Below, piece by piece: positions 16,798-39,508 of a stretch of 64,000 bases of DNA (position 1 is the first letter of the stretch; each line of letters opens with the position of its first letter). Source of the DNA: Kineococcus aurantiacus (GTDB lineage Bacteria; Actinomycetota; Actinomycetes; Actinomycetales; Kineococcaceae); assembly GCF_013409345.1 (NCBI RefSeq), contig NZ_JACCBB010000001.1:2852001-2916000 (forward strand), given 5' to 3'. Below the pieces are notes generated by a model. The model was given only the letters and a program-made list of their open reading frames with translations, had not been told where the DNA came from and made no database searches. A program made the position numbers and the translations under genes.

Positions 16798-16803
16798 ACC
16801 GTA
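16798..16803 (-). promoter_or_regulatory. -10 element TACGGT of the MocR gene
   Basis: Read on the minus strand, TACGGT stands six bases before GTG 16791, indicating a leaderless mRNA. The 43-bp gap also holds TTGGA-N5-TCCAA (16831-16845), which runs into the start of the divergent gene and could be a regulator site. Confidence 0.45.
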
Positions 16804-16834
16804 CTCGGATTGGCACTGTCGAAGGGGGTGTTGG

Positions 16835-17782: not shown

Positions 17783-19174
17783 TCACCCCGCGGCCAGCGG
17801 CCGACCGAGTTCACGCCGCACCGCCCGCAGCGACTCCTCCTGCTGGGCCTCGTAGAGGTCGAAGGGGTCCAGCACGGGGGCGCCGATCGCCTCCGAGAGC
17901 CGGGCCGCGTCCCACACCGCCCCCGCCCGGGCGTCGTCGCGGGTGCCCTCGTCGGTGAGGTTGGACTGGAAGATGCCCGCCGCCGAGCGGGGCAGGAAGT
18001 CCTCGTAGACGATCGGTTCCGCCACGAGCACCCCGGTGCGCAGCAGGGTGCCCGGGTCCGCGTCGGCCGTCCCCGCCGCGCGGTCGCCGACGGCCCACGT
18101 CGCGAACCCCAGCCCCTGCGCGAGGAGTTCGCGCTCGGTCGCCGGCAGGTTCTCCCGCCACACCTCCCGGGCCACCTCGACACGGGTGCGCACCTCACCC
18201 GGCCGGGCCCGGCGCGCGTCCACCTCGGCGACCATCGCGTCGTACAGGTCCCGGCCACGGCGGGTCAGGGCGATGCCGCGCTGCTCCACCTCCCCGAACC
18301 GGACGCGCAGGGTGGCGCGCTCGACGCGGCCGTCGGGCAGCCGGAACACCCGGTCCTCGGCCAGGGCCCGGAACGACGTCTGCCGCAGCAGGACGTCGGG
18401 CCCCTCCCAGGCCGGGGGGCCCTGGATCTCGTCGATCATCTCGATCCCCCGGGCCCGCATGCGCGCGTAGAGGTCGTCGATGTCCAGCACCCGCGGCGTC
18501 AGGTGGTTGACGTGGGTGGAGGGGACCCCGCCGATGTCGGCGGCGACGGAGGAGACGGTCTCCAGGTGCTCGTACCAGGCCTTGTCGACCGGTTCGCCGG
18601 ACAGCGCGAACGCGGCCGCGGCCAGGGTCAGCAGCCGCCCGGCGGCCGGCTCGTCCAGACCCCCGCCGGTGGCGGCCGCGTCGGCCAGGTCCAGCAGCTC
18701 GTCCCCGAACAGCCGGCGGGCGGCGAGGAACCGTTCCAGCCGCTCGCGGGTCGGGTCGTCGAAGAACCGGCGGTCGTCGGTGGCCAGCACGGAGGTGAAG
18801 ACGCGGAACGGGTTGCGCGCCAGCTCCTCCGGGTCGACGGGGCGGAACGCCGTCGAGACCACGGGGACCGAGCTGCGGGAGGCGTCGCGCAGGTCGTAGA
18901 ACCCGACGGGGTGCATGCCGAACGCGGCGAACACCCGCGCCACCTGCCCCAGCTCGCGGGCCGAGCCCACCCGGATCGCGCCGTGCCGCTCGGCGGTGAC
19001 CCGCTCGACGCTGCCCAGGCGCTCGGCCGACCGGCCGCGCCGGGCGGCGACGTCGGCGTTGACGGCCCGGGAGACCTCCACGAGGTCCTCGTAGGCCGGG
19101 ACCTCGCGGCCGTAGGTGGCGGCCAGGGCCAGGGCGAAGCGGGCCCGCAGTTCCCAGGTCGGGACGTGCGCCAT
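17783..19174 (-). CDS. hglS: 2-oxoadipate dioxygenase/decarboxylase (HglS/YdcJ, DUF1338)
   Basis: HglS is an Fe(II) enzyme that converts 2-oxoadipate with O2 into D-2-hydroxyglutarate and CO2 at the end of bacterial lysine breakdown. The 463-residue protein has the family length. The metal set can be read as His64, His221 or His224 (STHVNHLTPR) and Glu295 or Glu297 (RFGEVEQRG). The substrate-binding Arg of HglS lies four residues after the first His; here HGAIR gives His64 and Arg68. ATG 19174 has the ribosome site GGAAGGAG. It is the last gene of the four-gene minus-strand operon, 25 bp after the dehydrogenase, and this context agrees with the function. Confidence 0.88.
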   Translation of the reverse strand: MAHVPTWELRARFALALAATYGREVPAYEDLVEVSRAVNADVAARRGRSAERLGSVERVTAERHGAIRVGSARELGQVARVFAAFGMHPVGFYDLRDASRSSVPVVSTAFRPVDPEELARNPFRVFTSVLATDDRRFFDDPTRERLERFLAARRLFGDELLDLADAAATGGGLDEPAAGRLLTLAAAAFALSGEPVDKAWYEHLETVSSVAADIGGVPSTHVNHLTPRVLDIDDLYARMRARGIEMIDEIQGPPAWEGPDVLLRQTSFRALAEDRVFRLPDGRVERATLRVRFGEVEQRGIALTRRGRDLYDAMVAEVDARRARPGEVRTRVEVAREVWRENLPATERELLAQGLGFATWAVGDRAAGTADADPGTLLRTGVLVAEPIVYEDFLPRSAAGIFQSNLTDEGTRDDARAGAVWDAARLSEAIGAPVLDPFDLYEAQQEESLRAVRRELGRPLAAG

Positions 19175-19199
19175 CGGTGCTCCTTCCTCAGGGGTTCGC

Positions 19200-20372
19200 T
19201 CAGAGACGGACGTGGACGCGCCCGGGACGGCCGCTGCGGTCCATCGCCGCGCGCACCCGGTCCTGGGCGAGGCGGCGCGCGGCCGCGTGCGGGGGTTCCC
19301 CGGCCCGCCGGGCGGCGTCCAGGACGTCCACGGTGTTGCGGGACAACCGGTCCGCGACCGCGTCGAGGACCCGCTGCTCCTCGACGGGGAACACCGAGTA
19401 CCGCGCGTCCATCGCGAACGCCGCGGCCACCACCCCGCCGGCGTTGGCGATGAAGTCGGGGACCACGACGACGCCCCGCTCGTGCAGCACCCGCAGCGCC
19501 GCCGCGTCGGCGGGCAGGTTCGCGCCCTCGACGACGACGCGGGCCCGCACCCCCGCGGCCAGCTGCGCGTCCAGGACGTCCTGGCGCGCGGCGGGCACGA
19601 GGACGTCGGTGTCCAGCAGCAGTTCCGCCCCGGCGGGCAGCAGCCGCGCGCCGGGCACGTCGCGGGCGACGTGGTGGACCAGGCCGTCGCCGTGCGCGGC
19701 GGCGGCCAGCAGCGCGGGCACGTCGAGGCCGTCGGGGCGGTGCACGGCCCCGGCGGCCGTGGAGACCGCGACGACCTGCGCGCCCAGGGCGTCCAGGCGG
19801 CGGGCGGCGGCCCGGCCCACGGCCCCGAAACCCTGGACCACGACGCGGGACCCGGCGACGGCACCGCCGGTCCAGGCCAGCGCCGCGGCGGCGGCCCCGG
19901 CGACGCCGTGGCCGGTGACGCCCCACTGGTCGTAGGGAACGCCGCCGGTCTCGCGGGGGCTGCCGACCGCGGCGCCGCGGTCGCGCAGCTCGTCCTGCAC
20001 GACGGCCGCGTCGTCCTCACCGAGCCCCATGTCGAGGCCGACGACGTACTCCGAGGGCACCTCGTTGGCCAGGGCCCGCACGAACCGGCGCAGGTGCAGC
20101 TCCTTGTCCGGGGAGGCCGGGTCCCAGCGGATCCCGGCCTTGGCGCCGCCGAAGCCGAGGTCGACCGCGGCCCACTTCCAGGTCATGACCCGCGCCAGCC
20201 GTCCCACCTCCGAGACCGTGAGGTCCGGGGCCATGCGCGTACCGCCCTTGCCCATGCCGCGGGCGGTGTTGTCGATGACCAGGACCCCGCGCATCCCGCT
20301 GCGGGGTTCGGCGACGGTGACGACCTTCTCGGGCCCCCACTCGTCGACGTGGCTGAAGTCGTCGGCGATCAC
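19200..20372 (-). CDS. Glu/Leu/Phe/Val-type amino acid dehydrogenase
   Basis: The 390-residue NAD(P)-dependent dehydrogenase has the substrate domain motif GMGKGGTRMAP, the catalytic Lys in LGFGGAKAGIRWDP, and a Rossmann domain VVVQGFGAVGRAAARRL. Family members deaminate glutamate, leucine, phenylalanine or valine to 2-oxo acids. In this operon the missing step between aminoadipate (product of the ALDH7 upstream) and 2-oxoadipate (substrate of HglS downstream) is just such a deamination, so I infer an L-2-aminoadipate dehydrogenase; sequence alone does not fix the substrate. GTG 20372 overlaps the ALDH stop by four bases (GTGA). Confidence 0.85.
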   Translation of the reverse strand: MIADDFSHVDEWGPEKVVTVAEPRSGMRGVLVIDNTARGMGKGGTRMAPDLTVSEVGRLARVMTWKWAAVDLGFGGAKAGIRWDPASPDKELHLRRFVRALANEVPSEYVVGLDMGLGEDDAAVVQDELRDRGAAVGSPRETGGVPYDQWGVTGHGVAGAAAAALAWTGGAVAGSRVVVQGFGAVGRAAARRLDALGAQVVAVSTAAGAVHRPDGLDVPALLAAAAHGDGLVHHVARDVPGARLLPAGAELLLDTDVLVPAARQDVLDAQLAAGVRARVVVEGANLPADAAALRVLHERGVVVVPDFIANAGGVVAAAFAMDARYSVFPVEEQRVLDAVADRLSRNTVDVLDAARRAGEPPHAAARRLAQDRVRAAMDRSGRPGRVHVRL

Positions 20373-21973
20373 GCTGCGCCCGAACCGAAGTCGACGCCCT
20401 GCGCCAGCGGCAGGTCGCGGGAGAAGTTCACGGTGGTGGTGGCCCGGCGCATGTAGGCGCGCCAGGAGTCCGACCCGGCCTCGCGCCCGCCGCCGGTGGA
20501 CTTCTCCCCGCCGAACGCGCCGCCGATCTCGGCGCCGGAAGTGCCGATGTTGACGTTGGCGATGCCGCAGTCGGACCCGACGACGGAGGTGAACAGCTCC
20601 GCCTCTCGCTGGTCGCGGGTGAACACCGCCGACGACAGCCCCTGCGGCACGTCGTTGTTGAGGGCGAGGGCCTCCTCGAACTCGCGGTAGCGCAGCACGT
20701 ACAGCACGGGGGCGAACGTCTCGCGGCGCACGACGTCGAGCTGGGCGGGGACCTCCACGACCGCCGGCCGCACGTAGTGCGCCCGCTGCGGCCCGACCGC
20801 GACCCGCTCGCCGCCGACCACGACCGACCCGCCCCCGGCGACGGCCTCGTCGACGGCGGCGCGCATCGCGTCGTGGGTCGCGGCGGAGAACAGCGGGCCG
20901 ACGAGGGTGGCCGGGTCGAAGGGGTCACCCACGCGCAGGCCGGAGTAGACGGTGCTCAGCCGGGCCAGCAGCTCGTCGGCGACGGACTCGTGGACGATGA
21001 GCCGCCGCAGCGTGGTGCAGCGCTGGCCGGCGGTCCCGGCCGCGGCGAACACGATGCCGCGCACCGCGAGGTCGAGGTCGGCGCTGGGGGTGACGATCGC
21101 GGCGTTGTTGCCGCCGAGCTCGAGGATCGCGCGCCCGAAACGGGCCGCGACCCGCGGGGCGATCTCGCGGCCGAGGCGCTCGGAGCCGGTCGCGGACAGG
21201 ACCGGGACCAGGGGGCTGTCGACGAGGGGGGCCGCCCCGGTGGCGTCGGCGACGACGGTTCGGTTCAGGCCCGCGGGCATCCCCAGCTCGGCCGCGGCCC
21301 GTTCCAGCAGCGCGGAGGCGGCGAGCGCGACGAGCGGGGTGCGCTCGGAGGGTTTCCACACGACGGTGTCGCCGCAGACCAGGGCCAGCGCCGCGTTCCA
21401 GGCCCAGACGGCGGCGGGGAAGTTGAACGCCGAGATGACCCCGACGACGCCGACGGGGTGCCAGGTCTCGCTCAGCCGGTGCTCGGGGCGCTCGGAGGGC
21501 AGGGTCCGGCCCTCCAGCTGCCGGGACAGGCCCACGGCGAGGTCGCAGACGTCGACCATCTCCTGCACCTCACCCAGCGCCTCGGAGCGGATCTTGCCGA
21601 CCTCGACGCCGATGAGGTCGGCGAGGGGTTCGCGGTGCTCGGTGAGCAGGTCGCCCAGCCGGCGGACCAGGCGCCCGCGGACGGGGGCCGGGACGGTGCG
21701 CCAGCGCAGCCACGTCTCGTGGGCGGCGGCGACCGCGGCCTCGACGTCGGCGGCACCGGCCGCGGGCACCGTCGCGACGACCTGCCCGTCGAGGGGGCTG
21801 ACGACGTCGAAGGCAGCCCCGCCGGTGGTGGGGGAGGTGGCGGGGGGCGCCGGCCGGTCGGGGTCCACGCCGCAGGCGCGCAGCGCGGCGCGGGCGACGG
21901 CGCGCGGGTCGGTGCGCAGCTCGGTGGTGGGTCCGGTGGTCGATGCGGTGGTGGGCTCGGTGGTGGTGCTCAC
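20369..21973 (-). CDS. amaB: alpha-aminoadipate semialdehyde dehydrogenase (ALDH7 family)
   Basis: The 534-residue protein oxidises L-aminoadipate 6-semialdehyde, in equilibrium with piperideine-6-carboxylate, to L-2-aminoadipate. The C-terminal signature NIGTSGAEIGGAFGGEKSTG followed by GGREAGSDSWRAYMRR and the ending SRDLPLAQGVDF match human antiquitin (ALDH7A1) nearly word for word. Catalytic Glu is in LELGGNN (about residue 284) and the nucleophilic Cys in AGQRCTTLRR (about 317). The first 35 residues are a Thr-rich extension absent from most relatives. GTG 21973 has ribosome site GAGGAGA. It is second in the operon, 45 bp after the FAD oxidase. Confidence 0.92.
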   Translation of the reverse strand: MSTTTEPTTASTTGPTTELRTDPRAVARAALRACGVDPDRPAPPATSPTTGGAAFDVVSPLDGQVVATVPAAGAADVEAAVAAAHETWLRWRTVPAPVRGRLVRRLGDLLTEHREPLADLIGVEVGKIRSEALGEVQEMVDVCDLAVGLSRQLEGRTLPSERPEHRLSETWHPVGVVGVISAFNFPAAVWAWNAALALVCGDTVVWKPSERTPLVALAASALLERAAAELGMPAGLNRTVVADATGAAPLVDSPLVPVLSATGSERLGREIAPRVAARFGRAILELGGNNAAIVTPSADLDLAVRGIVFAAAGTAGQRCTTLRRLIVHESVADELLARLSTVYSGLRVGDPFDPATLVGPLFSAATHDAMRAAVDEAVAGGGSVVVGGERVAVGPQRAHYVRPAVVEVPAQLDVVRRETFAPVLYVLRYREFEEALALNNDVPQGLSSAVFTRDQREAELFTSVVGSDCGIANVNIGTSGAEIGGAFGGEKSTGGGREAGSDSWRAYMRRATTTVNFSRDLPLAQGVDFGSGAA

Positions 21974-22018
21974 GGGGTCTCCTCGGGTGGGGCGGGTGCG
22001 GCGGCGGACGGGGCGCGG

Positions 22019-23242
22019 TCAGACGATGGCCACCTCGGTGCGCCGGACGGGCGCGGCGAAGCGGTCGGCGCTGAAGGCGCCGACGTCGAGGGCGGGGGTG
22101 CGGCCCAGCAGCAGGTCCCGCACGCACTCGGCCGCGGCGGGCGCCTGGAGGAACCCGTGGCCGGAGAAGCCGGTGGCGTACAGGAAGCGGAAGGGCGTGC
22201 CGGTGGCTTCCCCGATGAGGGCGTTGCGGTCGGGGGTCTCCTCGTACAGCCCGGCCCACCCGCGTTCGAGGGGGACGTCGGCCAGGGCGGGGGCGACCCG
22301 GCGCAGGACCGCGCGCAGCCCGGTGTGCCAGGCGGTGTCGACCTCGCGGTCGAAACCTGCCGGTTCCGCGGGGTCGGCCCAGCCCAGCAGCAGGCCGCCG
22401 TCCTCGCTGCCGTGGAAGTAGGCGGTGCTGGACTGGTCGATGGTGAAGGGCACCGCGTGCGGGCGCGCGGGGGAGGGCGGGGCGAAGGCGACCTGGCGGC
22501 GGCGGGGCACGACGGGCAGGTCCACCCCGGCCAGGGCGGCGAGCGCGCCGGACCACGCGCCGGCCGCGCAGACGACGGCGGGCGCCAGCACGGCCGAGTT
22601 GTCAGACAACCTCACGCGCGCCTGCCCGGCGGGTCCCTCCTCCACGGCGACGACCTCGGCGCCGGTGCGGAAGCGCACCCCGGCCGCGCGCGCCCGTCGC
22701 GCCAGGGCGTGGACGACGGCCCGCGGCCGGGCGAACCCGGCGTCGGGGGACCACACCGCGGCCAGCAGCCCGGTGGGGTCGAGGTAGGGGCAGCGGCGGA
22801 CGGCCTCGGCGGGGTCGACGAGCCGGGTGGGGACGCCCAGGGCGTTCTGCACGCCGGCGCCGGCGGCGTGGCGCTCGACGTCGGCGGCGTCGCGCAGGGC
22901 GAACAGGTACCCGACCTCGCGCAGGCCGACGTCGGGCCCTCGCCCGCGCCCCGGTCCGTGCCCCTCGCCGCGGGCGAGGGCCCGGTAGGACTCCAGGCTG
23001 CGGCGGGCCAGTTCCACGTTGGCGGGGTCGGAGAACACGGCCCGCACCCCGCCGAGGGGTTTGCCGGAGGAACCGGCGGCGAGGTCGTCGCGTTCGAGCA
23101 CGACCACGTCGGTCGTCCCCGCCCGCGCCAGCGCGTCCGCCACGGCGACGCCGAGGATGCCGCCGCCGATGACGACGACCGCGGCGCGTTCGACGTTCCC
23201 GGTGCCGGTCGCGCGGGGTACCCCTCCGTGCGTCGTGGTCAC
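22019..23242 (-). CDS. FAD-dependent amine/imino acid oxidase (DAO/SoxB type)
   Basis: The 407-residue protein has an N-terminal FAD fold (VVVIGGGILGVAVADALARAG, then ERDDLAAGSSGKPLGG) and a DAO-fold substrate domain ending YEETPDRNALIGE and FLYATGFSGHGFLQAPA, as in sarcosine oxidase beta and related enzymes. Heading an operon for aminoadipate semialdehyde oxidation, it may oxidise L-pipecolate (as AmaA does in Pseudomonas putida) or another lysine derivative; this is inference. GTG 23242 has a strong site GGGAGGAGA. The coding sequence contains GTTGTCAGACAAC at 22598-22610, a copy of the palindrome at the frl promoter. Confidence 0.82.
   Translation of the reverse strand: MTTTHGGVPRATGTGNVERAAVVVIGGGILGVAVADALARAGTTDVVVLERDDLAAGSSGKPLGGVRAVFSDPANVELARRSLESYRALARGEGHGPGRGRGPDVGLREVGYLFALRDAADVERHAAGAGVQNALGVPTRLVDPAEAVRRCPYLDPTGLLAAVWSPDAGFARPRAVVHALARRARAAGVRFRTGAEVVAVEEGPAGQARVRLSDNSAVLAPAVVCAAGAWSGALAALAGVDLPVVPRRRQVAFAPPSPARPHAVPFTIDQSSTAYFHGSEDGGLLLGWADPAEPAGFDREVDTAWHTGLRAVLRRVAPALADVPLERGWAGLYEETPDRNALIGEATGTPFRFLYATGFSGHGFLQAPAAAECVRDLLLGRTPALDVGAFSADRFAAPVRRTEVAIV
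22598..22610. promoter_or_regulatory. intragenic copy of the frl operator palindrome
   Basis: GTTGTCAGACAAC lies inside the FAD oxidase gene and contains the same 11-mer TTGTCAGACAA found at 24316-24326. It matches the GntR/FadR half-site pattern TNGT-N3-ACNA and may be an auxiliary site. Confidence 0.35.
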
Positions 23243-23276
23243 GGTTCTCCTCCCGGTCCGGTGGTTCGGTGGGTTC

Positions 23277-23305
23277 ACCGTGCCGCCCGCGGGCCCACCG
23301 GACAA
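23277..23305 (-). promoter_or_regulatory. promoter of the lysine catabolic operon
   Basis: On the minus strand a -35 TTGTCC (23305-23300) and a weak -10 CACGGT (23282-23277) are 17 bp apart. The -10 departs from TANNNT, as in promoters that need an activator. Confidence 0.4.
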
Positions 23306-23311
23306 GCGACG

Positions 23312-23328
23312 GGTTCTGCGGTCGAACC
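23312..23328. promoter_or_regulatory. LysR-type box between divergent genes
   Basis: GGTTC-N7-GAACC is a perfect inverted repeat with the T-N11-A form used by LysR regulators. It sits just upstream of the -35 of the lysine operon, an activating position, and directly before the -10 of the lysR gene, an autorepressing position. Confidence 0.55.
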
Positions 23329-23330
23329 GT

Positions 23331-23336
23331 TAGGTT
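23331..23336 (+). promoter_or_regulatory. -10 element TAGGTT of the lysR-type gene
   Basis: TAGGTT lies six bases before ATG 23343, so the regulator mRNA is probably leaderless. Confidence 0.5.
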
Positions 23337-23342
23337 CCCTGC

Positions 23343-24251
23343 ATGGACGAGCTGGGTCGCGTGGGGTTGCGGGCGCTGGTGGAACTGGCCCGGCGGGGCA
23401 GCATCGCGGCGGTCGCCGAGGACACCGGGTACACCGCAGGCGCTGTCTCGCAGCAGATCGCGCGGCTGGAATCCGTGGTGGGGCACCCGCTGACGGTCCG
23501 TTCGGGCCGGGGGGTCCGGTTGACGGACGTGGGGCGGGTGCTGGCCGAGGAGGCCGTGGCCGTGCTGCGCGCGGAGGAGGCGGCGCTGGCCGCGGCGCGG
23601 GCGGCGCGCACCGAGGTCCGGGGTCAGTTGCGCATCGGGGTCTTCGGCAGCACCGCGGCGACGTTGCTCGCGCCGCTGGTCCTGCGGTCGGCGCAGGTCC
23701 ACCCCGGGTTGCGGCTGACGAGCCGGGAGGTCGACGTGGACGACACCGCGGCGGCGGTGCGGCGCGGGGAGGTCGACGTCGCGTTCGGCGTGGAGTACCC
23801 CGACGCACCGATGCCGCGGCGGCCCGAGACCGAACTCGTGCCGCTGCTCACCGAGCGGTTCGCGCTGGCGGTGTCGCCGGAGGTTCCCGGGCCGGGACGC
23901 ACCACGCTGTCCGCGGCGGCGCGGTGGCCGTGGATCCTCACGCCGGCCTGCACGCCGTTCGGGGCGGCGGTGCGCAACGCGTGCCGGTCGGCGGGTTTCG
24001 AACCCGACGTGCTGCACGAGGTGACGGACACGTCGGCGGCGCTGCTGCTGGCCGGCCGCGGGCTGGGGGTCACCCCGGTGACCCCGCTCATGCGGCGGCT
24101 GGGGACGGAGCCGGTGCGGGTGCTGGAGCTGGACGACGTCGTCGAGCGCCGGATCGTGCTGGTGCGCCACCGCGCGGACGCGGGCCGGGCGACGGTGCGG
24201 GCGCTGACCGAGGTGCTGCGCGCGGTGACGGCGGAGGAACCCGTCGGCTGA
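23343..24251 (+). CDS. LysR family regulator of the lysine catabolic operon
   Basis: The 302-residue protein has the LysR winged helix (GSIAAVAEDTGYTAGAVSQQIARLE, residues 16-45) and the two-lobed effector domain (GQLRIGVFGSTAATLLAPL, LLLAGRGLGVTPVTPL). It is divergent from the FAD oxidase/ALDH7/dehydrogenase/HglS operon and very likely controls it, with a lysine-pathway intermediate as inducer. The start at ATG 23343 follows its -10 by six bases, so no ribosome site is needed. The frl operon begins 105 bp after its stop on the same strand. Confidence 0.88.
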   Translation: MDELGRVGLRALVELARRGSIAAVAEDTGYTAGAVSQQIARLESVVGHPLTVRSGRGVRLTDVGRVLAEEAVAVLRAEEAALAAARAARTEVRGQLRIGVFGSTAATLLAPLVLRSAQVHPGLRLTSREVDVDDTAAAVRRGEVDVAFGVEYPDAPMPRRPETELVPLLTERFALAVSPEVPGPGRTTLSAAARWPWILTPACTPFGAAVRNACRSAGFEPDVLHEVTDTSAALLLAGRGLGVTPVTPLMRRLGTEPVRVLELDDVVERRIVLVRHRADAGRATVRALTEVLRAVTAEEPVG

Positions 24252-24285
24252 GCGGAAGTCGTACGAACAGCGTGCGACGAAACCG

Positions 24286-24315
24286 TTGACAGCAGTTGTC
24301 TGCTTGGACATTCTT
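24286..24315 (+). promoter_or_regulatory. promoter of the frl operon
   Basis: A consensus -35 TTGACA (24286-24291) is followed at 17-18 bp by CATTCT/ATTCTT. The stretch 24280-24340 is much richer in A and T than its surroundings, marking a control region. Confidence 0.6.
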
Positions 24316-24326
24316 TTGTCAGACAA
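24316..24326. promoter_or_regulatory. GntR/FrlR-type operator
   Basis: TTGTCAGACAA is a perfect palindrome around a central A and matches the FadR-type GntR consensus TNGT-N3-ACNA. It covers the predicted start point. A further half-site TTGTCTG lies at 24296-24302 between -35 and -10. The GntR gene in the operon is the likely binder. Confidence 0.55.
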
Positions 24327-24356
24327 GTTGCTGCAAAGTCTGATGGGAGGTGCCGG

Positions 24357-25139
24357 GTGATCGGGGTCATCGGTGACAACACCATCGACCGCTACGTCGG
24401 CGAGGTCGAGCGGACCTTCGTCGGCGGCAACGCGCTGAACGTCGCGGTGCAGCTGCACCGGCACGGGCGGCCCGTGCACTACTCCGGCGCCGTCGCCGAC
24501 GACCCCGACGGGCAGGTCGTCCGCGCGGCCGTCGAGGCCCAGGGCGTGGGCGTGACCGGTCTGCGCACCGATCCCGGCGAGACGGCCGTGACGCTGGTGG
24601 AGGTCGCCGCCGACGGCGAGCGCTCCTTCGCCCGCGAGGACTTCGGCGTCACCGCCCGCTTCGTCCCCGCCGAGGCCGAACTGGACCTGCTCGCCCGCTG
24701 CGACTGGGTGCACCTCGGCATGACCGCTGCGGCGCAGCAGGTCCGCGACGCCCTGCGCGCCCGCGGCCCGGTGCGCCTCAGCCAGGACTGCGCCGTCAGC
24801 CCCGGCCACGACGGGCTGGAGGTCGCCTTCCTGTCCGTCGGCGACGACCGCTCCCGGGCGCCGGCCGCCGCCCGGGAGGCCCTCGCCGGCGGGGCCCGGC
24901 TGGCCGTCGCCACCTGCGGGGCCGCCGGCGCCTACGCCACCGACGGGCAGCGGGAGTGGTGGCAGGACGCCACCGCCGCCGACGTCGTCGACACCACCGG
25001 GGCCGGTGACTCCTTCATCGCCGGCTTCATCGCCGCGCGGGTGGACGGGCACGACGTGCCCACCGCCCTGCGCACCGGCTCGCAGTGGGCCGCCGCCACG
25101 TGCGGCCACCTCGCGGGCTGGCCGCAGGACCCCTCGTGA
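24357..25139 (+). CDS. frlD: PfkB-family fructoselysine 6-kinase
   Basis: The 260-residue protein is a ribokinase-fold sugar kinase of the short FrlD type. It opens IGVIGDNTIDRY, binds sugar with TFVGGNALNVAVQLHRHG, and ends with the catalytic motif DTTGAGDSFIAGF (about residue 215), whose Asp activates the sugar hydroxyl. FrlD phosphorylates the 6-OH of fructoselysine. Its neighbour encodes the matching deglycase FrlB and the operon also has FrlC, so the assignment rests on family plus context; glucoselysine or other Amadori compounds are possible. GTG 24357 has the ribosome site GGGAGG. Confidence 0.83.
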   Translation: MIGVIGDNTIDRYVGEVERTFVGGNALNVAVQLHRHGRPVHYSGAVADDPDGQVVRAAVEAQGVGVTGLRTDPGETAVTLVEVAADGERSFAREDFGVTARFVPAEAELDLLARCDWVHLGMTAAAQQVRDALRARGPVRLSQDCAVSPGHDGLEVAFLSVGDDRSRAPAAAREALAGGARLAVATCGAAGAYATDGQREWWQDATAADVVDTTGAGDSFIAGFIAARVDGHDVPTALRTGSQWAAATCGHLAGWPQDPS

Positions 25140-25218
25140 CCTTCCCGGCGCCGCGCCGGGACCCCGACGACCGCCGCCCCTCCGGGCCGGCGGGACCCAC
25201 CACCCAGGGAGTGGAACC

Positions 25219-26232
25219 ATGCTGAACTTCGACGAAGAGCGCTTCGTGCGCATCCAGTCCGGCGCCGTCGGGCTCGCCGGGCAGCTGCACCGGGCCGTGG
25301 CCGACGCGCTGGAGGCCGGCGCGCAGAACCTGTTCTTCCTCGGCGCCGGCGGGGTCACCCTGCTGACCCACCCGGCCGCGCGCCTGCTGCAGACCACCTC
25401 GACCTTCCCCGTCCACCTGGACATGGCCGCCGAGCTCGTGGTGCGCGACAACGTGCACCTCGGGCCGCAGTCCCTCGTCGTCATGCCCTCGCTGTCGGGC
25501 ACCACGAAGGAGGCCGTCGAGGCGCTGGAGTTCTGCCGCGCCAAGGGCGCCCGCGTCCTCACCCTCACCGGGCACGCCGACACCCCGATGGCGCAGCTGG
25601 CCGACGTGAACTTCACGAACTTCGCCGAGGACGACACCTCCAGCGAGTCGTACTACCTGCAGACCCTGCTCATCGCCCTGTCCGTCATGCACCTGCGCGG
25701 GGAGCACGACGCCTACCCGCAGACGGTCGCCGAGCTGGAGGCGCTGCCCGCCCAGCTCGTCGAGGTCAAGCGCGCGTTCGAGTCCCGCGCCGCGGAGATC
25801 GCCCGCACCATCAAGGACGAGCCGTACCACGTCATCACCGCGGCCGGGTCGGCCTGGCCCGAGGCGTACTACTACGGCATGTGCATCCTGGAGGAGATGC
25901 AGTGGATCCGGACCCGCCCGGTGCACGCCTCCGACTTCTTCCACGGCACCCTCGAACTCGTCGAGGCCGGCGTCAGCGTCGTCGTCCTCAAGGGCGAGGA
26001 CGAGACCCGCCCGCTGGCCGAGCGCGTGGAGAAGTTCGTCCCCGACCACACCGAGAAGCTGCTGGTGCTGGACACCGCCGACTTCGAGCTGCCCGGCACC
26101 TCCGCCGCCGTGCGCGCGCTCGTCTCCCCGGTCCTGCTGGCCACGGCCCTGGAACGGCTCAGCGCCCACCTGGAGGTGCTGCGCGACCACCCGCTCACCA
26201 CCCGCCGCTACTACCGGCGCCTGGACTACTGA
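25219..26232 (+). CDS. frlB: SIS-domain fructoselysine-6-phosphate deglycase
   Basis: The 337-residue protein has two SIS domains (LFFLGAGGVTLLTHPAARLL; VVMPSLSGTTKEAVEAL; VITAAGSAWPEAYYYGMCI). The stretch LEEMQWIRTRPVHASDFFHG holds the Glu and His that act in this deglycase group (FrlB/FraB). FrlB splits fructoselysine 6-phosphate into glucose 6-phosphate and lysine, the point where this operon would hand lysine to the neighbouring catabolic operon. ATG 25219 has the ribosome site GGGAGTGG. It follows frlD by 79 bp. Confidence 0.85.
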   Translation: MLNFDEERFVRIQSGAVGLAGQLHRAVADALEAGAQNLFFLGAGGVTLLTHPAARLLQTTSTFPVHLDMAAELVVRDNVHLGPQSLVVMPSLSGTTKEAVEALEFCRAKGARVLTLTGHADTPMAQLADVNFTNFAEDDTSSESYYLQTLLIALSVMHLRGEHDAYPQTVAELEALPAQLVEVKRAFESRAAEIARTIKDEPYHVITAAGSAWPEAYYYGMCILEEMQWIRTRPVHASDFFHGTLELVEAGVSVVVLKGEDETRPLAERVEKFVPDHTEKLLVLDTADFELPGTSAAVRALVSPVLLATALERLSAHLEVLRDHPLTTRRYYRRLDY

Positions 26233-26380
26233 GACCCGACCACCGACCGTTCCGACCACCCGACCCCGGAGGCCAGCGTGCCCGGCACCCGCCCGAGCGC
26301 CCCGCTCACCGCGGCGCTCGCCGCGCTCCCGCGGGAGACTCCGCAGGTGCCGCTCGTCGGGCTCGTCCCGGTGGGTTCAG

Positions 26381-26386
26381 TAGCGT
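26381..26386 (+). promoter_or_regulatory. possible -10 TAGCGT of the gntR gene
   Basis: TAGCGT stands 29 bases before ATG 26416 in the 183-bp gap after frlB; the -35 is weak. The rest of that gap (26233-26380) shows no gene I can support, although the frame is open from 26278. Confidence 0.35.
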
Positions 26387-26415
26387 CGCTCCCCTCGACG
26401 GAGGAGGGGACCACC

Positions 26416-27135
26416 ATGCCCGACAAGCGGCCGCTGCCCAGCATCGTGCGCGACCAGCTCATGGACCTGCTGCGGGCGCAGGGGTTCAAGCCGGGGGACC
26501 GGCTGCCCAGCGAGGCGGAGATCTCCCGCCTGTGGGACGTCGGGCGCAGCAGCGTCCGGGAAGCGCTGAAGCTGCTGGAGCAGGAGGGGCTGGTCCAGGC
26601 CGAGCGCGGCCGGGGACGGTTCCTGTCCTCCCTCGGCAGCCTCAGCGTGGACCGGCCCATCACCCGGTTCGAGTCCGCCACCCAGATGCTGGCCAGCCTG
26701 GGGCGCAGCAGCCGCACCATGGTGCTGTCGGTCACCGAGACCGACCCCTCGCCCGAGGCGGTCGAGGCCCTCGGCCTGGCCGAGGGCGAACGGGTCGTCC
26801 GCCTCGAGCGGCTGCGCTCGGACGGGGACGACCCCCTCATCTACAGCGTCGACACCATCCCGGCCTTCTGCATCCCCGGCCCCGTCCGCCACGTGGACTG
26901 GACCGGCTCGCTCACCGAGCTGCTCGCCATCCAGGGGCACCTGCCCGTCTCCTCGGCCGCCCGCCTGCAGGCCGTCGAGCTGCCCGAGCAGGTGCGCACC
27001 CAGTACCACCTCGACGGTTTCGGCCCGTGGCTGCTCATCACCGAGACCGCCATCACCACGACCGGCCGCCGGGTCCTGCTCGCCGAGGACTACCACCGCG
27101 GTGACGCCTTCACCTTCAACGTCCTGCGCCGCTGA
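26416..27135 (+). CDS. GntR family regulator (FrlR-like, UTRA domain)
   Basis: The 239-residue protein has a GntR winged helix (LPSEAEISRLWDVGRSSVREALKLLEQEGLVQ, residues 35-65 region, with the VREAL recognition helix) and a C-terminal UTRA effector domain (YSVDTIPA, ending AEDYHRGDAFTFNVLRR). It probably represses the frl operon until fructoselysine 6-phosphate or a similar ligand binds, as FrlR does in other bacteria. ATG 26416 has the strong ribosome site GGAGGAGGGG. A GTG at 26278 would add 46 poorly conserved-looking residues and is rejected. Likely operators are at 24316-24326 and 22598-22610. Confidence 0.85.
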   Translation: MPDKRPLPSIVRDQLMDLLRAQGFKPGDRLPSEAEISRLWDVGRSSVREALKLLEQEGLVQAERGRGRFLSSLGSLSVDRPITRFESATQMLASLGRSSRTMVLSVTETDPSPEAVEALGLAEGERVVRLERLRSDGDDPLIYSVDTIPAFCIPGPVRHVDWTGSLTELLAIQGHLPVSSAARLQAVELPEQVRTQYHLDGFGPWLLITETAITTTGRRVLLAEDYHRGDAFTFNVLRR

Positions 27136-27193
27136 GCGACGCAGGGGCCAGCGCGCCGGCCCCGGCCGGCGACCACCCCCCGAGAGAGGTCCC

Positions 27194-28657: not shown

Positions 28658-28795
28658 GGACCCACCACCGCACGACCCGCACCACCCGCACGCAGGAGCA
28701 CCGCCCGGGGGCCGTCGACACCGTCGTCGGCGCCGCCCCCGACCGCCCGGCAGCACCTCAGCGCTCGTCACCCCGACACGACCAGGAGGTCAACC

Positions 28796-30118
28796 ATGCC
28801 CGGAAACACGCGCCGCGCGCTCGTGGCGGCCGGTCTCACCGCCGTCCTCGGCCTCGCCGCCTGCGGGGGCGGGGGGTCCGGCACCGGCGCGGTGGCCGAC
28901 GTCACCGCGTCCCCCACCTACTCCGGTGAGCTGAGCATCCTCACCAAGTTCGGCCAGGCCGAGCTCGCGCCCTACTTCACCGACCTCGCCGCCGCGTACG
29001 AGCAGCAGCACCCCGACGTCGACGTGAAGCTCATCCAGGAGACCGACCAGAGCGTCAAGGACAAGACCAAGACGCTGGTCGCCTCCCAGGCGCTGCCCGA
29101 CATCTACTTCACGTGGACGGGCAACTGGGCGGACAACTTCACCCGCGCCGGCCTGGCCGCCGACCTCACCCCCGTCCTCGGGCCCGGCACCGAGTGGGGT
29201 TCGACCTTCAGCAAGCCGATGCTCGACGCCTTCGCGCAGGACGGGAAGTACTACGGCATCCCGCTCTACACCGACGCCAAGTTCATGGGCTACAACGAGA
29301 AGGTCTTCGCCGACCTCGGGCTGGACGTGCCCGCGACGTTCGAGGAACTGCTGTCCGACTGCGGCACGATCCAGGCCGCCGGGCTGGAACCCATCGCCTT
29401 CGGCAACAAGGACGGCTGGCCCGGCCTGCACTACCTGCAGCAGCTGTTCGCCTACAACGTCCCCACCGCGACGCTGGAAGCCGACTTCGACCCGGCCACC
29501 GCCACCTGGACCGACCCCGGCTACGTGAAGTCCATGGAGCAGTTCGTCCAGCTCGTCCAGCGGTGCACGAGCACCGGCGCGCAGTCCAACGGCGTCCTCT
29601 ACACGACCGCCAAGCAGCAGCAGTCCGACGGCCACGCCGCCATGTACTACCAGGAGATCATCGAGTTCGACGGGACCGCAGCCGAGGGCACCCCGCTGGC
29701 CCGCGACGGTTTCGGGTTCTTCCCCCTGCCCGTCCCCGAGGGCGCCGCCGGCGACCCGGAGGCGATCGAGGGCGCCCCCGAGGGGTACTTCGTCAACGCC
29801 CGGTCGAAGAACGCCGCCCTCGCGGTGGACTTCATGAAGTTCGTCACCAGCCAGGAGAACGGCAAGGTCCTCTCGGCCCCGCCGTACGGGCAGCCCAGCG
29901 CCGTCGTGGGCGCCGCGGGCACCTCCAGCCCCGCCGTCGCCGCCTCCGTCCAGGAGCTCGACGAGGCCAGCGCCGTGATCCCCTGGCTGGACACCATCAC
30001 CGTCCCCGACGTGGCCAGCGCGTGGCTCGCCGGGGGTGAGGCGCTCGTCAACGGCGACCGGACACCGCAGGAGGTCCTCGCCGGCGTGCAGAAGGCCTCC
30101 GCCGCGGCGAAGGGCTGA
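28796..30118 (+). CDS. ABC importer, solute-binding lipoprotein (frl operon)
   Basis: The 440-residue CUT1-type binding protein begins with a lipoprotein signal (VLGLAAC, Cys about residue 22) and a Gly/Ser linker. Family patterns follow: YFTDLAAAYEQQHPDVDVKLI, LPDIYFTWTGNWADNF, YYGIPLYTDAKFMGYNEKVF. It should bind the Amadori compound, as FrlO does in Bacillus subtilis; that ligand is inferred from the operon. ATG 28796 has an ideal ribosome site AGGAGG. The next gene follows after four bases. Confidence 0.88.
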   Translation: MPGNTRRALVAAGLTAVLGLAACGGGGSGTGAVADVTASPTYSGELSILTKFGQAELAPYFTDLAAAYEQQHPDVDVKLIQETDQSVKDKTKTLVASQALPDIYFTWTGNWADNFTRAGLAADLTPVLGPGTEWGSTFSKPMLDAFAQDGKYYGIPLYTDAKFMGYNEKVFADLGLDVPATFEELLSDCGTIQAAGLEPIAFGNKDGWPGLHYLQQLFAYNVPTATLEADFDPATATWTDPGYVKSMEQFVQLVQRCTSTGAQSNGVLYTTAKQQQSDGHAAMYYQEIIEFDGTAAEGTPLARDGFGFFPLPVPEGAAGDPEAIEGAPEGYFVNARSKNAALAVDFMKFVTSQENGKVLSAPPYGQPSAVVGAAGTSSPAVAASVQELDEASAVIPWLDTITVPDVASAWLAGGEALVNGDRTPQEVLAGVQKASAAAKG

Positions 30119-30122
30119 GCCG

Positions 30123-31091
30123 GTGGCCCACGACACCTCCTCCCGCGCGCCGGCCGGCCGCGCCCCCGTCGGGCGTCCGCCGCTGCCCACCGCCGCCCGG
30201 GCCCGGACCGGGACGGCGCGCCGGGCCCTGGGCCTGGTGTGGGTGCTGCCGGCCCTGGTCGTCCTGGCGGTCTTCGTCTACCTGCCGCTGGTGCAGAACC
30301 TCGGGTTCAGCTTCCTGAGGTGGGACATCTTCAGCGGCACGTTCTCCTTCGCCGGCGGCGACAACTACCGGAAGATGGCCGGCGACCCGGTGTTCTGGCG
30401 GTCGCTGCGCAACAACATCGCCTACGCCGTCGTCTCGGTCGTGGTGCAGGTCTTCGGGGCCCTGCTGCTGGCCGCGCTCGTCGAGAGCCTGCGCAGCGAC
30501 CGGTGGCGCCGGGCGCTGCGCGCGGTCTACTTCATCCCCTCGGCCATCTCCATCACGGTCGCGGGCCTGCTGTTCTACTTCCTCTACGAACCGAACCTCG
30601 GCCTGCTCAACGCCGCCCTCGGGGGCCTGGGCCTGGACGGGCTGGAGCACGCCTGGCTGGGCGACAGCGGCACCGCCGTCTACGCGGTCATCGCCATGAG
30701 CCAGTGGCAGGGTTTCGGCTACAGCACGCTGCTGTTCGCGCTGGCCATCCAGCGCATCCCCCCGGAGATCATGGAGGCCGCGGCCCTCGACGGGGTCGGT
30801 CCCGTGCGCCGCTTCCTGCAGATCACCGCCCCCCTGGTGGGGGAGATGACCTCGCTCATGGTGATCGTCACGATCTCCGGCGCCTTCCAGGTGTTCAACG
30901 AGGTCATGGTCATGACCTCCGGCGGACCCGACAACTCCTCGCAGGTCCTCGGGACGTGGCTGTACCAGAGCGGTTTCGTGCAGAACGACTTCGGGTACGC
31001 GGCGGCGATCGCCGTCGTGGTGTTCTTCGTGACGTTCCTCGTCGCGCTGGCGCAGCTGGCGCTGGGCCGCCGGCGCAGAGTGGAGTGGTGA
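30123..31091 (+). CDS. ABC importer, permease (frl operon)
   Basis: The 322-residue CUT1 permease has a cytoplasmic N-terminus of about 35 residues and six membrane segments. The EAA loop reads EIMEAAALDGVGPVRRFLQI near residue 220. It corresponds to FrlN in position and type. GTG 30123 follows the binding-protein stop closely, and its own stop overlaps the next start (ATGA). Confidence 0.87.
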   Translation: MAHDTSSRAPAGRAPVGRPPLPTAARARTGTARRALGLVWVLPALVVLAVFVYLPLVQNLGFSFLRWDIFSGTFSFAGGDNYRKMAGDPVFWRSLRNNIAYAVVSVVVQVFGALLLAALVESLRSDRWRRALRAVYFIPSAISITVAGLLFYFLYEPNLGLLNAALGGLGLDGLEHAWLGDSGTAVYAVIAMSQWQGFGYSTLLFALAIQRIPPEIMEAAALDGVGPVRRFLQITAPLVGEMTSLMVIVTISGAFQVFNEVMVMTSGGPDNSSQVLGTWLYQSGFVQNDFGYAAAIAVVVFFVTFLVALAQLALGRRRRVEW

Positions 31092-31921
31092 TGACCGCGA
31101 CCGGAACCCGCTACCTGGCCCGGGTGTGCCTGTGGGGGCTGCTGCTGTCCCTGGCCGTCGTGGTCGTCTACCCGCTGCTGTGGATGGTGCTCAACGGGTT
31201 CAAGACCAACGCCGAGCTGTTCGCCAACCCCTTCGCCCTGCCCCACCAGTGGGGGCTGGGGAACTTCGCCGCCGCCTGGGACCGCGGCGTCAGCAGCTAC
31301 CTGGCGACCAGCGTCTTCGTCACGATCGTCTCGACGCTGAGCACCGCGCTGCTCAGCGCCTGGGCGGCCTACGGCCTGACCCGGCTGCGGGTCCCGCTGG
31401 AGGGCCCGCTCACCGCGGTGGTCCTGGCCGGGCTCATGCTGGCCCCCACCGTCGCCCTCATCCCGCTGGTCCAGCTGTTCCAGCGCCTCGGGCTCTACAA
31501 CAGCGTCTGGGCGCTGGTCATCCTCTACACCGCGTTCCGCATCCCGTTCACGACGTTCCTCATCCGCGCCTACATGGTCGAGATCCCCCGTGAGATCGAC
31601 GAGGCCGCCAGCATCGACGGGGCCGGACCCGGGTACACGTTCTGGCGGATCGTCCTGCCGCTGTGCAAGCCGATCATGGCCTCGGTGGTGATCCTGCACG
31701 TGCTGTTCGCGTGGAACGAGTACCTGTTCGCGATGATCTTCACCAGCGGGGCCGGCACCCAGACGCTGCCCGTCGGCCTGACGAACCTCATGGCCCGGCA
31801 CGGGACCGACTACCCCGTCGTCTTCGCCGGCATGGCCATCGCCGCGCTGCCCATGGTGCTGCTCTTCTTCGGCGGCCAGCGCTGGTTCATCCGCGGCCTG
31901 GCCGACGGGGTGGGCAAGTGA
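31091..31921 (+). CDS. ABC importer, permease (frl operon)
   Basis: The 276-residue MalG-type permease has six membrane segments and the EAA loop EIDEAASIDGAGPGYTFWRI near residue 180. It pairs with the product of 30123-31091 and corresponds to FrlM. ATG 31091 overlaps the previous stop and its stop overlaps the frlC start by four bases, so the three genes are translationally coupled. As in the other importer of the window, no ATPase gene is present. Confidence 0.87.
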   Translation: MTATGTRYLARVCLWGLLLSLAVVVVYPLLWMVLNGFKTNAELFANPFALPHQWGLGNFAAAWDRGVSSYLATSVFVTIVSTLSTALLSAWAAYGLTRLRVPLEGPLTAVVLAGLMLAPTVALIPLVQLFQRLGLYNSVWALVILYTAFRIPFTTFLIRAYMVEIPREIDEAASIDGAGPGYTFWRIVLPLCKPIMASVVILHVLFAWNEYLFAMIFTSGAGTQTLPVGLTNLMARHGTDYPVVFAGMAIAALPMVLLFFGGQRWFIRGLADGVGK

Positions 31922-32778
31922 GCCCCACGGCCACCGGCACCCGGCTGCGGATCACCGGCTCGAACTTCAGCTACCAGCACACCACCTTCGCGCGGTTCTG
32001 CGCCGACGCGGCCGAGCTGGGCCTGCGGGACCTGGAGCTGTGGGGGATCGCGCCGCACCTGCAGGTCGACACCGCCACCGCCGCGGACGTCGCCGCGCTG
32101 CGCGCGGAACTGGACCGGCACGGCCTGCGGGTGCGGTGCCTGACCCCCGAGCAGGTCGTGTACCCGGTGAACCTCGCCTCCGGCGACGAGGGCCTGCGCC
32201 GGCGCAGCGTGGCGCTGTTCCGGCGCGCCGCCGACATCGCCGCCGACCTCGGCAGCGACCTGCTGTTCCTCACCTCCGGGCGCGGCTACGAGGACGAACC
32301 GGTCGAGCCGGCCCGGGCCCGGTCGGTCCGGTCGCTGCGCGAAGTGGTCGCCCACGCCGCCGGACTCGGGCTGGAGTGCGTCCTGGAACCGCTGCAACGG
32401 CGCGAGACCAACCTCGTGCGCACCACCGCCGACCTGCGCGCCGCGCTCGACGACGTCGGGGAACCGTCCCTCGGGGTCGCCCTGGACACCGTGGCGATGG
32501 CGTGCGCGGGGGAGGGGGTGCAGGACTACCTGCGGGCGTTCGGCGTCGGGACCGGCGGCGTGCGCCACGTCCACCTCGTCGACGGCACCCCCGCCGGGCA
32601 CCTCGTGCCCGGCGAGGGGGACCTGCCGCTGGCGGACGTCGTGGCCGCGCTGACGGCCGCGGGGTACCCGGGGTGGGCGACGTTCGAGCTGTTCGGCGAC
32701 GGCGGGTACGCCCTGGACCCGCGCCCGGCGCTGGAACGCTGCCTGGAGTGGTTCCGCGGGCTCGACGCCGCGGCCTGA
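31918..32778 (+). CDS. frlC: fructoselysine 3-epimerase (FrlC), TIM-barrel
   Basis: The 286-residue protein is a xylose-isomerase-like TIM barrel. It tracks E. coli FrlC closely: LELWGIAPH, CLTPEQVVYPVNLASGDEGLR, VLEPLQRRETNLV, VALDTVA, HVHLVDGTPAGHLVPGEGDL, ATFELFG. The metal ligands Glu (LEPL), Asp (LDTV), His (HVHLVD) and Glu (FELFG) are all present. FrlC interconverts psicoselysine and fructoselysine, widening the range of glycated amines used. GTG 31918 lies within the stop of the permease gene. It is the last gene of the frl operon and a strong hairpin follows. Confidence 0.85.
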   Translation: MSPTATGTRLRITGSNFSYQHTTFARFCADAAELGLRDLELWGIAPHLQVDTATAADVAALRAELDRHGLRVRCLTPEQVVYPVNLASGDEGLRRRSVALFRRAADIAADLGSDLLFLTSGRGYEDEPVEPARARSVRSLREVVAHAAGLGLECVLEPLQRRETNLVRTTADLRAALDDVGEPSLGVALDTVAMACAGEGVQDYLRAFGVGTGGVRHVHLVDGTPAGHLVPGEGDLPLADVVAALTAAGYPGWATFELFGDGGYALDPRPALERCLEWFRGLDAAA

Positions 32779-39448: not shown

Positions 39449-39508
39449 ACGCGGCGGCCGGGCCGTTCCGTGCCCGAGCACCCCTCCCGCGGCGGCACAC
39501 TTGAGCAC

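What the first reader, a model, noticed from the sequence alone, without database searches (positions are those of the whole stretch)
17783..32778. Fructoselysine (Amadori product) operon joined to a lysine/2-oxoadipate catabolic operon
The frl operon (frlD, frlB, GntR, FAD oxidase, importer, frlC) should yield glucose 6-phosphate and lysine from glycated lysine. The operon next door encodes ALDH7, an amino acid dehydrogenase and HglS, which carry aminoadipate semialdehyde to D-2-hydroxyglutarate. Each family call rests on visible motifs; the idea that the 15 kb island burns both halves of an Amadori compound is inference. I do not know of a described case where these two modules are neighbours. 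The step from lysine to the semialdehyde is not obvious and may need one of the two FAD oxidases or a gene elsewhere.
Basis: partly seen in the sequence, partly recalled or inferred. Interest (0 to 1): 0.85.

Follow-up and report, generated by a model that had tools for sequence, protein, structure and literature searches.

The report
Glycated-lysine burning gene island
Two neighbouring gene sets in this bacterium look able to take a sugar-damaged amino acid apart and burn both halves, and similar gene sets seem to have come together separately in at least one other bacterium, although the actual food molecule is not proven.

Summary
17783-32778 carries a fructosamine (frl-type) operon beside an operon of a flavin enzyme (FADoxA), piperideine-6-carboxylate (P6C) dehydrogenase, an amino acid dehydrogenase and HglS, with a divergent LysR gene. 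P6C dehydrogenase and HglS pass curated cut-offs; the frl proteins miss the fructoselysine-specific ones. The left operon is an actinobacterial module: FADoxA is in 30 of 57 HglS loci, lysine 6-aminotransferase in 6, never both, so FADoxA probably makes P6C, most simply from pipecolate. A YdiJ-like gene lies at 39470-42382. The frl-hglS linkage is rare (1 of 394 class genomes has both genes, this one; 2 of 32 HglS-bearing frl genomes have them within 20 kb) but recurs in Arthrobacter humicola, with the whole lysine set and a frlD-frlB pair in one run, and less fully in Ruicaihuangia caeni; the three HglS proteins sit apart in the tree. The frl operator TTGTCNGACAA has a second copy inside FADoxA here (about 1% by chance). 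Against: this genome shows no lysine 6-aminotransferase and no cyclodeaminase-family gene, so lysine's entry is open; R. caeni lacks P6C dehydrogenase. Joint use of glycated lysine is plausible, not shown.

The parts
17783..19174 (-). HglS, 2-oxoadipate dioxygenase/decarboxylase (2-oxoadipate to D-2-hydroxyglutarate)
   Evidence: NF050083 697.2 bits over cut-off 600; PF07063; 6w1g alignment keeps H70, H226, E294 and R74 (residues from passages of PMC7286885). Start codon chosen by eye.
19200..20372 (-). ELFV-family amino acid dehydrogenase (AADH), proposed 2-aminoadipate to 2-oxoadipate
   Evidence: PF00208 and PF02812; no NCBIfam equivalog reaches its cut-off; role inferred from place: 17 of 18 AADH-bearing HglS loci also have FADoxA
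20369..21973 (-). ALDH7-type L-piperidine-6-carboxylate dehydrogenase
   Evidence: NF050084 762.5 bits over cut-off 730; best PDB match 6rtr, Pcd, E 2.3e-206
22019..23242 (-). FADoxA, DAO/sarcosine-oxidase-type flavin enzyme, proposed P6C-forming step (L-pipecolate oxidase/dehydrogenase)
   Evidence: PF01266; best PDB match 1y56_B, E 1.4e-45; in 30 of 57 HglS loci, never with LAT. Start by eye.
22599..22609 (.). second exact TTGTCAGACAA, inside the FADoxA coding sequence; candidate frl-repressor site
   Evidence: no exact match in 100 dinucleotide shuffles; synonymous shuffles of the 4 operon genes gave 25 sites in 2000 rounds
23343..24251 (+). LysR-type regulator of the lysine/pipecolate module
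   Evidence: PF00126/PF03466; a LysR relative of 30% or more lies within 1.5 kb of FADoxA in 13 of 30 FADoxA loci, the window included
24316..24326 (.). frl operator TTGTCAGACAA, 30 bases before frlD
   Evidence: TTGTCNGACAA lies within 400 bp upstream of frlB in 40 of 80 loci; 41 sites in 32,000 bp there against 5 in 1,503,454 bp elsewhere
24357..25139 (+). FrlD-like PfkB kinase (fructosamine 6-kinase)
   Evidence: best NCBIfam hit fructoselysine 6-kinase 145.7, below cut-off 247
25219..26232 (+). FrlB-like SIS deglycase
   Evidence: PDB 2a3n E 4.3e-64, 8glr, 3eua; NF008481 102.1, below cut-off 430; E226 and H242 invariant in 11 sequences
26416..27135 (+). GntR/UTRA repressor, FrlR-like (start by eye)
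   Evidence: PF00392 and PF07702
27194..28657 (+). FADoxB, DAO-family flavin enzyme of the frl operon; substrate unknown
   Evidence: best NCBIfam TIGR03329 380 below cut-off 632.8; relatives of 45% identity or more in 16 of 80 frl loci; AF2 model pLDDT 82.2, best fold matches glycine/sarcosine oxidases
28796..30118 (+). sugar ABC importer, binding protein
   Evidence: carbohydrate binding-protein models match, below cut-off
30132..31091 (+). sugar ABC importer, permease 1 (start approximate)
   Evidence: translation; relatives of 56-72% in importer-bearing frl loci
31091..31921 (+). sugar ABC importer, permease 2
   Evidence: translation; relatives of 53-71% in importer-bearing frl loci
31918..32778 (+). 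FrlC-like epimerase
   Evidence: PF01261; best NCBIfam fructoselysine 3-epimerase 129.2, below cut-off 305
39470..42382 (+). YdiJ-like FAD/Fe-S dehydrogenase, candidate D-2-hydroxyglutarate dehydrogenase, 6.7 kb beyond the frl operon with unrelated genes between
   Evidence: 52% to the gene that ends the A. humicola run; best NCBIfam NF049975 439.1, below cut-off 1350

Best explanation
Two catabolic units that probably work together. Right unit: an ABC importer (no ATPase gene in the operon) brings in an Amadori compound, FrlC may epimerise it, FrlD phosphorylates the sugar at C6, and FrlB cuts it into glucose 6-phosphate and an amino acid; a GntR repressor acting on TTGTCAGACAA controls it. 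Left unit: FADoxA makes piperideine-6-carboxylate (most simply from L-pipecolate), ALDH7 oxidises it to 2-aminoadipate, the ELFV dehydrogenase gives 2-oxoadipate, HglS gives D-2-hydroxyglutarate, and a YdiJ-like enzyme (one copy 6.7 kb beyond the frl operon) gives 2-oxoglutarate; LysR controls it. If the amino acid released is lysine, the island carries both halves of glycated lysine into central metabolism. Backed by curated cut-offs: HglS and ALDH7. Inferred: the roles of FADoxA, AADH and the YdiJ-like gene, the fructoselysine substrate, the repressor-operator pairing and cross-regulation. Missing: lysine to pipecolate in this genome.
For: HglS and P6C dehydrogenase over cut-offs; HglS metal and substrate residues kept. 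FADoxA in 30, LAT in 6, both in 0 of 57 HglS loci; cyclodeaminase/ketimine-reductase-family (OCD) match in 13, all with FADoxA (two of these proteins checked). frl next to hglS in R. caeni and A. humicola, three separate places in the HglS tree. In A. humicola: LysR, FrlD2, FrlB2, amino-acid ABC importer, OCD-family gene, FADoxA, HglS, ALDH7, AADH, YdiJ-like, all +. Of 3 HglS-bearing genomes among 22 actinobacterial frl loci (sorted by me from record titles, after seeing the data), 2 have HglS within 20 kb; chance about 2e-4. Second operator copy in FADoxA.
Against: This genome has no LAT over cut-off and no OCD-family match, so no known route from lysine to P6C was found; G028 and G044, which carry FADoxA, have neither as well. 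No class-wide co-occurrence: 21 FrlB, 34 HglS, 1 both of 394; 0 of 12 surveyed frl neighbourhoods with HglS. Over all 80 frl genomes 32 have HglS and only 2 have it within 20 kb; chance about 0.02. R. caeni has no P6C dehydrogenase at E 1e-100. frl proteins miss the fructoselysine cut-offs. The second operator copy is about a 1% event by chance and has no exact counterpart in the A. humicola or R. caeni stretches with the lysine/HglS genes. A related frl operon in Cereibacter sphaeroides 2.4.1 lies next to an asparaginase gene, so the amino acid may differ.
Confidence: 0.5

Rival explanations
1. Two independent catabolic units that are neighbours by accident of gene gain. The frl operon serves other fructosamines (for example alpha-glycated amino acids) and the left operon serves pipecolate or lysine from plants and soil.
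For: 28 of 30 FADoxA loci and 54 of 57 HglS loci show no frl gene in the stretch fetched, and 48 of 80 frl genomes show no HglS. No OCD or LAT in this genome. B. subtilis frl favours alpha-glycated amino acids (PMC12632257, abstract and passages). frl beside an asparaginase gene in C. sphaeroides.
Against: Three phylogenetically separate linkages, one of them a single run with frlD2-frlB2 in front of the lysine set; LysR directly followed by a frlD-frlB pair in both the window and A. humicola although these proteins are only 29% alike; second operator copy.
Confidence: 0.35
2. One of the flavin enzymes acts directly on N-epsilon-substituted lysine (fructoselysine or carboxymethyl-lysine), cutting the C-N bond to give aminoadipate semialdehyde without free lysine or pipecolate.
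For: FADoxA and FADoxB belong to the sarcosine/glycine oxidase group, many of which attack secondary amines (chemistry recalled); weak FADoxA matches to fructosyl amine oxidases; no other lysine entry enzyme found in this genome. P6C dehydrogenase is present in 4 of 9 tested genomes with FADoxB in an frl operon.
Against: FADoxA occurs in 28 loci without frl nearby and, in 13 loci, with an OCD-family match in the fetched stretch, one checked being closest to ketimine reductases, which points to pipecolate. FADoxB sits in frl operons of 5 of 9 tested genomes without P6C dehydrogenase (G470, G472, G475, G481, G485), where such a product would be a dead end.
Confidence: 0.1

Closest known systems
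Pseudomonas putida D-lysine/pipecolate pathway (AmaA, AmaB, aminotransferase, HglS, YdiJ; gene names partly recalled)
   Same: P6C dehydrogenase, HglS and a YdiJ-like enzyme; a DAO-family flavin enzyme in the proposed pipecolate oxidase slot
   Different: FADoxA is not AmaA by NCBIfam (32.9 bits, cut-off 600); a dehydrogenase stands where P. putida uses an aminotransferase (recalled); genes are clustered and beside frl
Bacillus subtilis frlBONMD-frlP fructosamine operon
   Same: SIS deglycase, PfkB kinase, binding protein, two permeases, a repressor gene close by
   Different: no frlP-like ATPase gene in the window operon (in B. subtilis FrlP, encoded downstream in the operon, or MsmX energises the importer; PMC12632257, passages); has FrlC-like and FADoxB genes; gene order differs
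Escherichia coli frl and Salmonella gfr fructoselysine systems
   Same: FrlD, FrlB, FrlC-type proteins by best NCBIfam hit; FrlB's best solved matches are 2a3n/8glr
   Different: ABC importer instead of the gfr PTS (PMC12675984, passages) or FrlA (recalled); scores below the equivalog cut-offs
Intestinimonas AF211 fructoselysine and lysine operons (PMC4697335)
   Same: both halves of fructoselysine used, gene clusters about 20 locus tags apart
   Different: a lysine-to-butyrate route

Membership tests
HglS (2-oxoadipate dioxygenase/decarboxylase) | passes curated family model | tested here: met
   NF050083 697.2 over 600; the other HglS model NF049974 378.5 is below its 550
HglS (2-oxoadipate dioxygenase/decarboxylase) | H70/H226/E294 metal triad and R74 | tested here: met
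   alignment to 6w1g, read by position; residues named in passages of PMC7286885
L-piperidine-6-carboxylate dehydrogenase | passes NF050084 | tested here: met
   762.5 over 730
P. putida-type pipecolate/2-oxoadipate pathway | AmaA L-pipecolate oxidase | tested here: not met
   FADoxA 32.9 and FADoxB 119.7 bits, cut-off 600: works-like claim only
P. putida-type pipecolate/2-oxoadipate pathway | D-2-hydroxyglutarate dehydrogenase YdiJ | tested here: inconclusive
   window 39470-42382 best hit NF049975 439.1 below 1350
P. putida-type pipecolate/2-oxoadipate pathway | route from lysine to pipecolate or P6C in the genome | tested here: inconclusive
   no LAT over cut-off, no PF02423 at 1e-10; other reductase, racemase and oxidase families not tested
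fructoselysine frl operon (E. coli type) | equivalog cut-offs for FrlD, FrlB, FrlC | tested here: not met
   145.7/247, 102.1/430, 129.2/305
fructosamine kinase-deglycase operon (general) | PfkB kinase and SIS deglycase with importer and GntR/UTRA regulator | tested here: met
   shared operator
fructosamine kinase-deglycase operon (general) | activity on fructoselysine | not testable with these tools
   needs an enzyme assay

The most novel reading that the evidence does not exclude
Actinobacteria have more than once joined fructosamine deglycation to a pipecolate-to-2-oxoglutarate operon, making a route that burns both halves of glycated lysine, and in this genome the fructosamine repressor also governs the lysine unit through a second operator copy inside its first gene.
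Probability: 0.3. Interest if true: 0.75.

Novelty: new variant of a known kind. Interest (0 to 1): 0.58.

Why it matters
Amadori compounds form in decaying plant matter and heated food, and most described bacterial pathways end at glucose 6-phosphate and a free amino acid. A linked island would show how soil actinobacteria use the amino acid half too. It also brings out an actinobacterial FADoxA-HglS-ALDH7-AADH-YdiJ-like operon for which my literature listings showed no description, a flavin enzyme (FADoxB) kept in frl operons of two phyla with no role known to me, and a testable operator.

Tried and rejected
FADoxB as the lysine-to-P6C enzyme: set aside because 5 of 9 tested genomes with FADoxB in an frl operon have no P6C dehydrogenase at E 1e-100 (G470, G472, G475, G481, G485); 4 of 9 have it (G000, G474, G489, G493). 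So disfavoured, not excluded.

Lysine 6-aminotransferase elsewhere in the genome: none over cut-off. Cyclodeaminase/ketimine reductase of PF02423: none in the window genome (4 of 8 genomes searched had one).

Conservation of the island in the genus: not found (HglS 0 of 10 congeners; a strong FrlB relative in 1 of 10, 34% identical).

Sharing of the operator by the lysine unit in A. humicola or R. caeni: no exact TTGTCNGACAA in the stretches searched, and matches with up to 2 mismatches are about as many as chance gives (core). The window's second copy is not a general feature.

The rest of the 32 were excluded by eye from coordinates; where contigs differ the true distance is unknown.

Fold search for FADoxB gave only the broad glycine/sarcosine oxidase and amino acid deaminase group at 20% identity or less in the 50 rows shown; no substrate can be read from it. 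FADoxA was not folded.

Literature: nine searches listed no paper that describes frl beside hglS or P6C dehydrogenase; I saw the listings, and passages of six papers (PMC4912152 gave nothing used). Only open-licence PubMed Central papers are held.

The ABC ATPase partner of the importer was not searched for.
Full report
What is there. HglS (NF050083 697.2 over 600) and the ALDH7 protein (NF050084 L-piperidine-6-carboxylate dehydrogenase, 762.5 over 730) pass curated cut-offs; HglS keeps H70, H226, E294 and R74 of the P. putida enzyme in the alignment to 6w1g (residues from passages of PMC7286885). FrlD, FrlB and FrlC have the fructoselysine models as best hits but below their cut-offs. FrlB matches the solved SIS proteins 2a3n and 8glr and, less closely, 3eua, named a putative fructose-aminoacid-6-phosphate deglycase. 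E226 and H242, invariant in 11 sequences, have the spacing I recall for the FraB catalytic pair (recalled, not from a call).

Anatomy. Left operon, minus strand: FADoxA, ALDH7, AADH, HglS. LysR stands divergently from FADoxA and is followed on the plus strand by FrlD, FrlB, GntR, FADoxB, binding protein, two permeases, FrlC. No ABC ATPase gene is in the operon; in B. subtilis the ATPase FrlP is encoded downstream in the frl operon and MsmX can replace it (passages of PMC12632257). The genes examined on both sides are unrelated, but a YdiJ-like gene lies at 39470-42382, 6.7 kb beyond FrlC.

The left module is a common actinobacterial unit. I collected 57 HglS loci: the window, R. caeni, A. humicola, Actinoallomurus soli, 15 of the window's order (HglS in 16 of 99 genomes), 18 of the family of A. 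humicola (19 of 295 genomes) and 20 of the class (34 of 394; 21 of the 33 others were fetched, counting G024). FADoxA relatives of 40% or more are in 30, LAT of over 60% in 6, both in 0 (chance 0.008; for the order and class loci alone 0.046; neither corrected for kinship). AADH of 50% or more is in 18, 17 of them with FADoxA; OCD-family matches of 28% or more in 13, all with FADoxA; a YdiJ-like gene of 40% or more in 18. LAT over cut-off is elsewhere in the genome of three FADoxA carriers (G018, G081, G093), so the exclusion concerns the cluster, not the genome. Of 8 genomes searched for PF02423, 4 had none, among them FADoxA carriers G000, G028 and G044, which also have no LAT over cut-off: FADoxA modules can stand without either known feeder. 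The L197 OCD protein is closest to piperideine-2-carboxylate/pyrroline-2-carboxylate reductase models (180.5, below cut-off 322); the A. humicola one to an ornithine cyclodeaminase family model (184.9, below 417) with the reductase model second. The economical reading is pipecolate, P6C, 2-aminoadipate, 2-oxoadipate, D-2-hydroxyglutarate, 2-oxoglutarate. FADoxA's best solved match is 1y56_B, named sarcosine oxidase in the PDB; I recall it as an L-proline dehydrogenase subunit.

The right module. A scan of named genomes with an FrlB alignment gave 80 loci, the best 80 of a capped list. A FADoxB relative of 45% or more is in 16 of 80: 15 of the 24 loci with the binding protein and 1 of the 56 without (p 2.7e-9 without correction for kinship), in 6 actinobacterial and 10 alphaproteobacterial loci by record title; one of them, L143, gave a stop in translation. 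C. sphaeroides 2.4.1 carries it on plasmid pB. TTGTCNGACAA lies within 400 bp upstream of frlB in 40 of 80 loci, 41 sites in 32,000 bp against 5 in 1,503,454 bp elsewhere; only 4 of 22 actinobacterial loci have the exact form, 13 of 22 the core TGTCNGACA. In the window the frl promoter has it (24316-24326), and the only other exact copy is inside FADoxA (22599-22609). Dinucleotide shuffles gave none in 100; synonymous shuffles gave 25 sites in 2000 rounds for the four operon genes and 3 in 300 rounds for 33 genes. So about 1% by chance: a hint, not proof.

Is the pairing real? Against: in the class survey 21 genomes have FrlB at 1e-25, 34 have HglS at 1e-60, and only the window genome has both, which is no more than independence predicts (about 1.8); 0 of 12 frl neighbourhoods fetched from the order and class surveys show HglS; the 10 other species of the genus have no HglS and one has a 34% FrlB relative. 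Of the 80 named frl genomes 32 have HglS (5 of 32, 27 of 48), and within 20 kb only 2. For: those 2 are R. caeni (FrlD, FADoxB, FrlC, HglS in one row, its only HglS) and A. humicola (same contig by its length, 507,566 bases). Alloyangia pacifica has HglS on the FrlB contig about 28.5 kb away. The chance of 2 or more of 32 is about 0.02, and of 2 or more of the 3 actinobacterial ones about 2e-4; that second group was chosen after seeing the data, and I sorted it by record titles, leaving out L092, titled Mycobacterium, whose frl arrangement looks alphaproteobacterial and whose genome has no HglS. The HglS tree (60 rows) puts window, R. caeni and A. humicola in three separate, well supported places, with one origin in 0% of 200 bootstrap trees. 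In A. humicola the order is LysR, FrlD2, FrlB2, amino-acid ABC importer, OCD-family gene, FADoxA, HglS, ALDH7, AADH, YdiJ-like, all on one strand; FrlB2 is only 29% like the window FrlB, so this is a separate assembly of the same kinds of genes.

Weak points. The window genome has no LAT over cut-off and no PF02423 gene, so either lysine is converted by untested families or FADoxA has another substrate. R. caeni has no P6C dehydrogenase at 1e-100 and no FADoxA seen in its locus, so its HglS is unlikely to be fed by the same route; HglS there is followed by a D-2-hydroxyacid dehydrogenase. That leaves A. humicola as the one full parallel. The frl substrate is not fixed: FraB and FrlB are said to be specific for different compounds (PMC9609667, passages), and for GfrE and GfrF the text and the legend of PMC12675984 disagree on which takes which (passages).

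Verdict. Precedent in principle exists in Intestinimonas (PMC4697335, passages). Nine literature searches (listings) showed no description of this pairing. New variant of a known kind. On checking, several counts were mended; the odds did not need to change.

Noticed in passing
L070, L073, L074, L081, L086, L087, L121, L124, L125, L127-L129, L135, L140, L143, L148; L233:6391-7803: A FADoxB-type flavin enzyme is a recurrent frl-operon gene across two phyla with no role known to me; in Cereibacter sphaeroides 2.4.1 it is on plasmid pB near an asparaginase gene and a UgpC-type ATPase gene.
   Followed up: partly
window 24357-32778: The frl operon looks mosaic: importer and FrlC are closest to Agromyces loci (54-72%), GntR to Actinoallomurus/Streptosporangiaceae/Streptomyces loci (67-72%), FADoxB to Arthrobacter, Leifsonia and Ruicaihuangia (57-59%).
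   Followed up: partly
L155:5886-8314, L206: HglS relatives in R. caeni and G523 stand beside D-2-hydroxyacid dehydrogenase genes without an ALDH7-type P6C dehydrogenase nearby: perhaps another use of HglS.
   Followed up: partly
L192, L195, L197-L199, L201-L203, L205: A divergent unit of GntR regulator, amino-acid binding protein, OCD-family gene and ABC importer beside FADoxA-HglS-ALDH7-AADH-YdiJ-like genes in the family of A. humicola.
   Followed up: partly
L156+L157 (A. humicola contig, 126354-128284): A second, distant frlD-frlB pair directly after LysR and before an amino-acid-type ABC importer.
   Followed up: partly
window 15370-17473: YczR-like MocR regulator and YczE membrane protein genes on opposite strands, overlapping as called.
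   Followed up: no
window 9102-14510: GH127 glycosidase gene with sugar ABC importer genes, possibly another plant-sugar unit close by.
   Followed up: no
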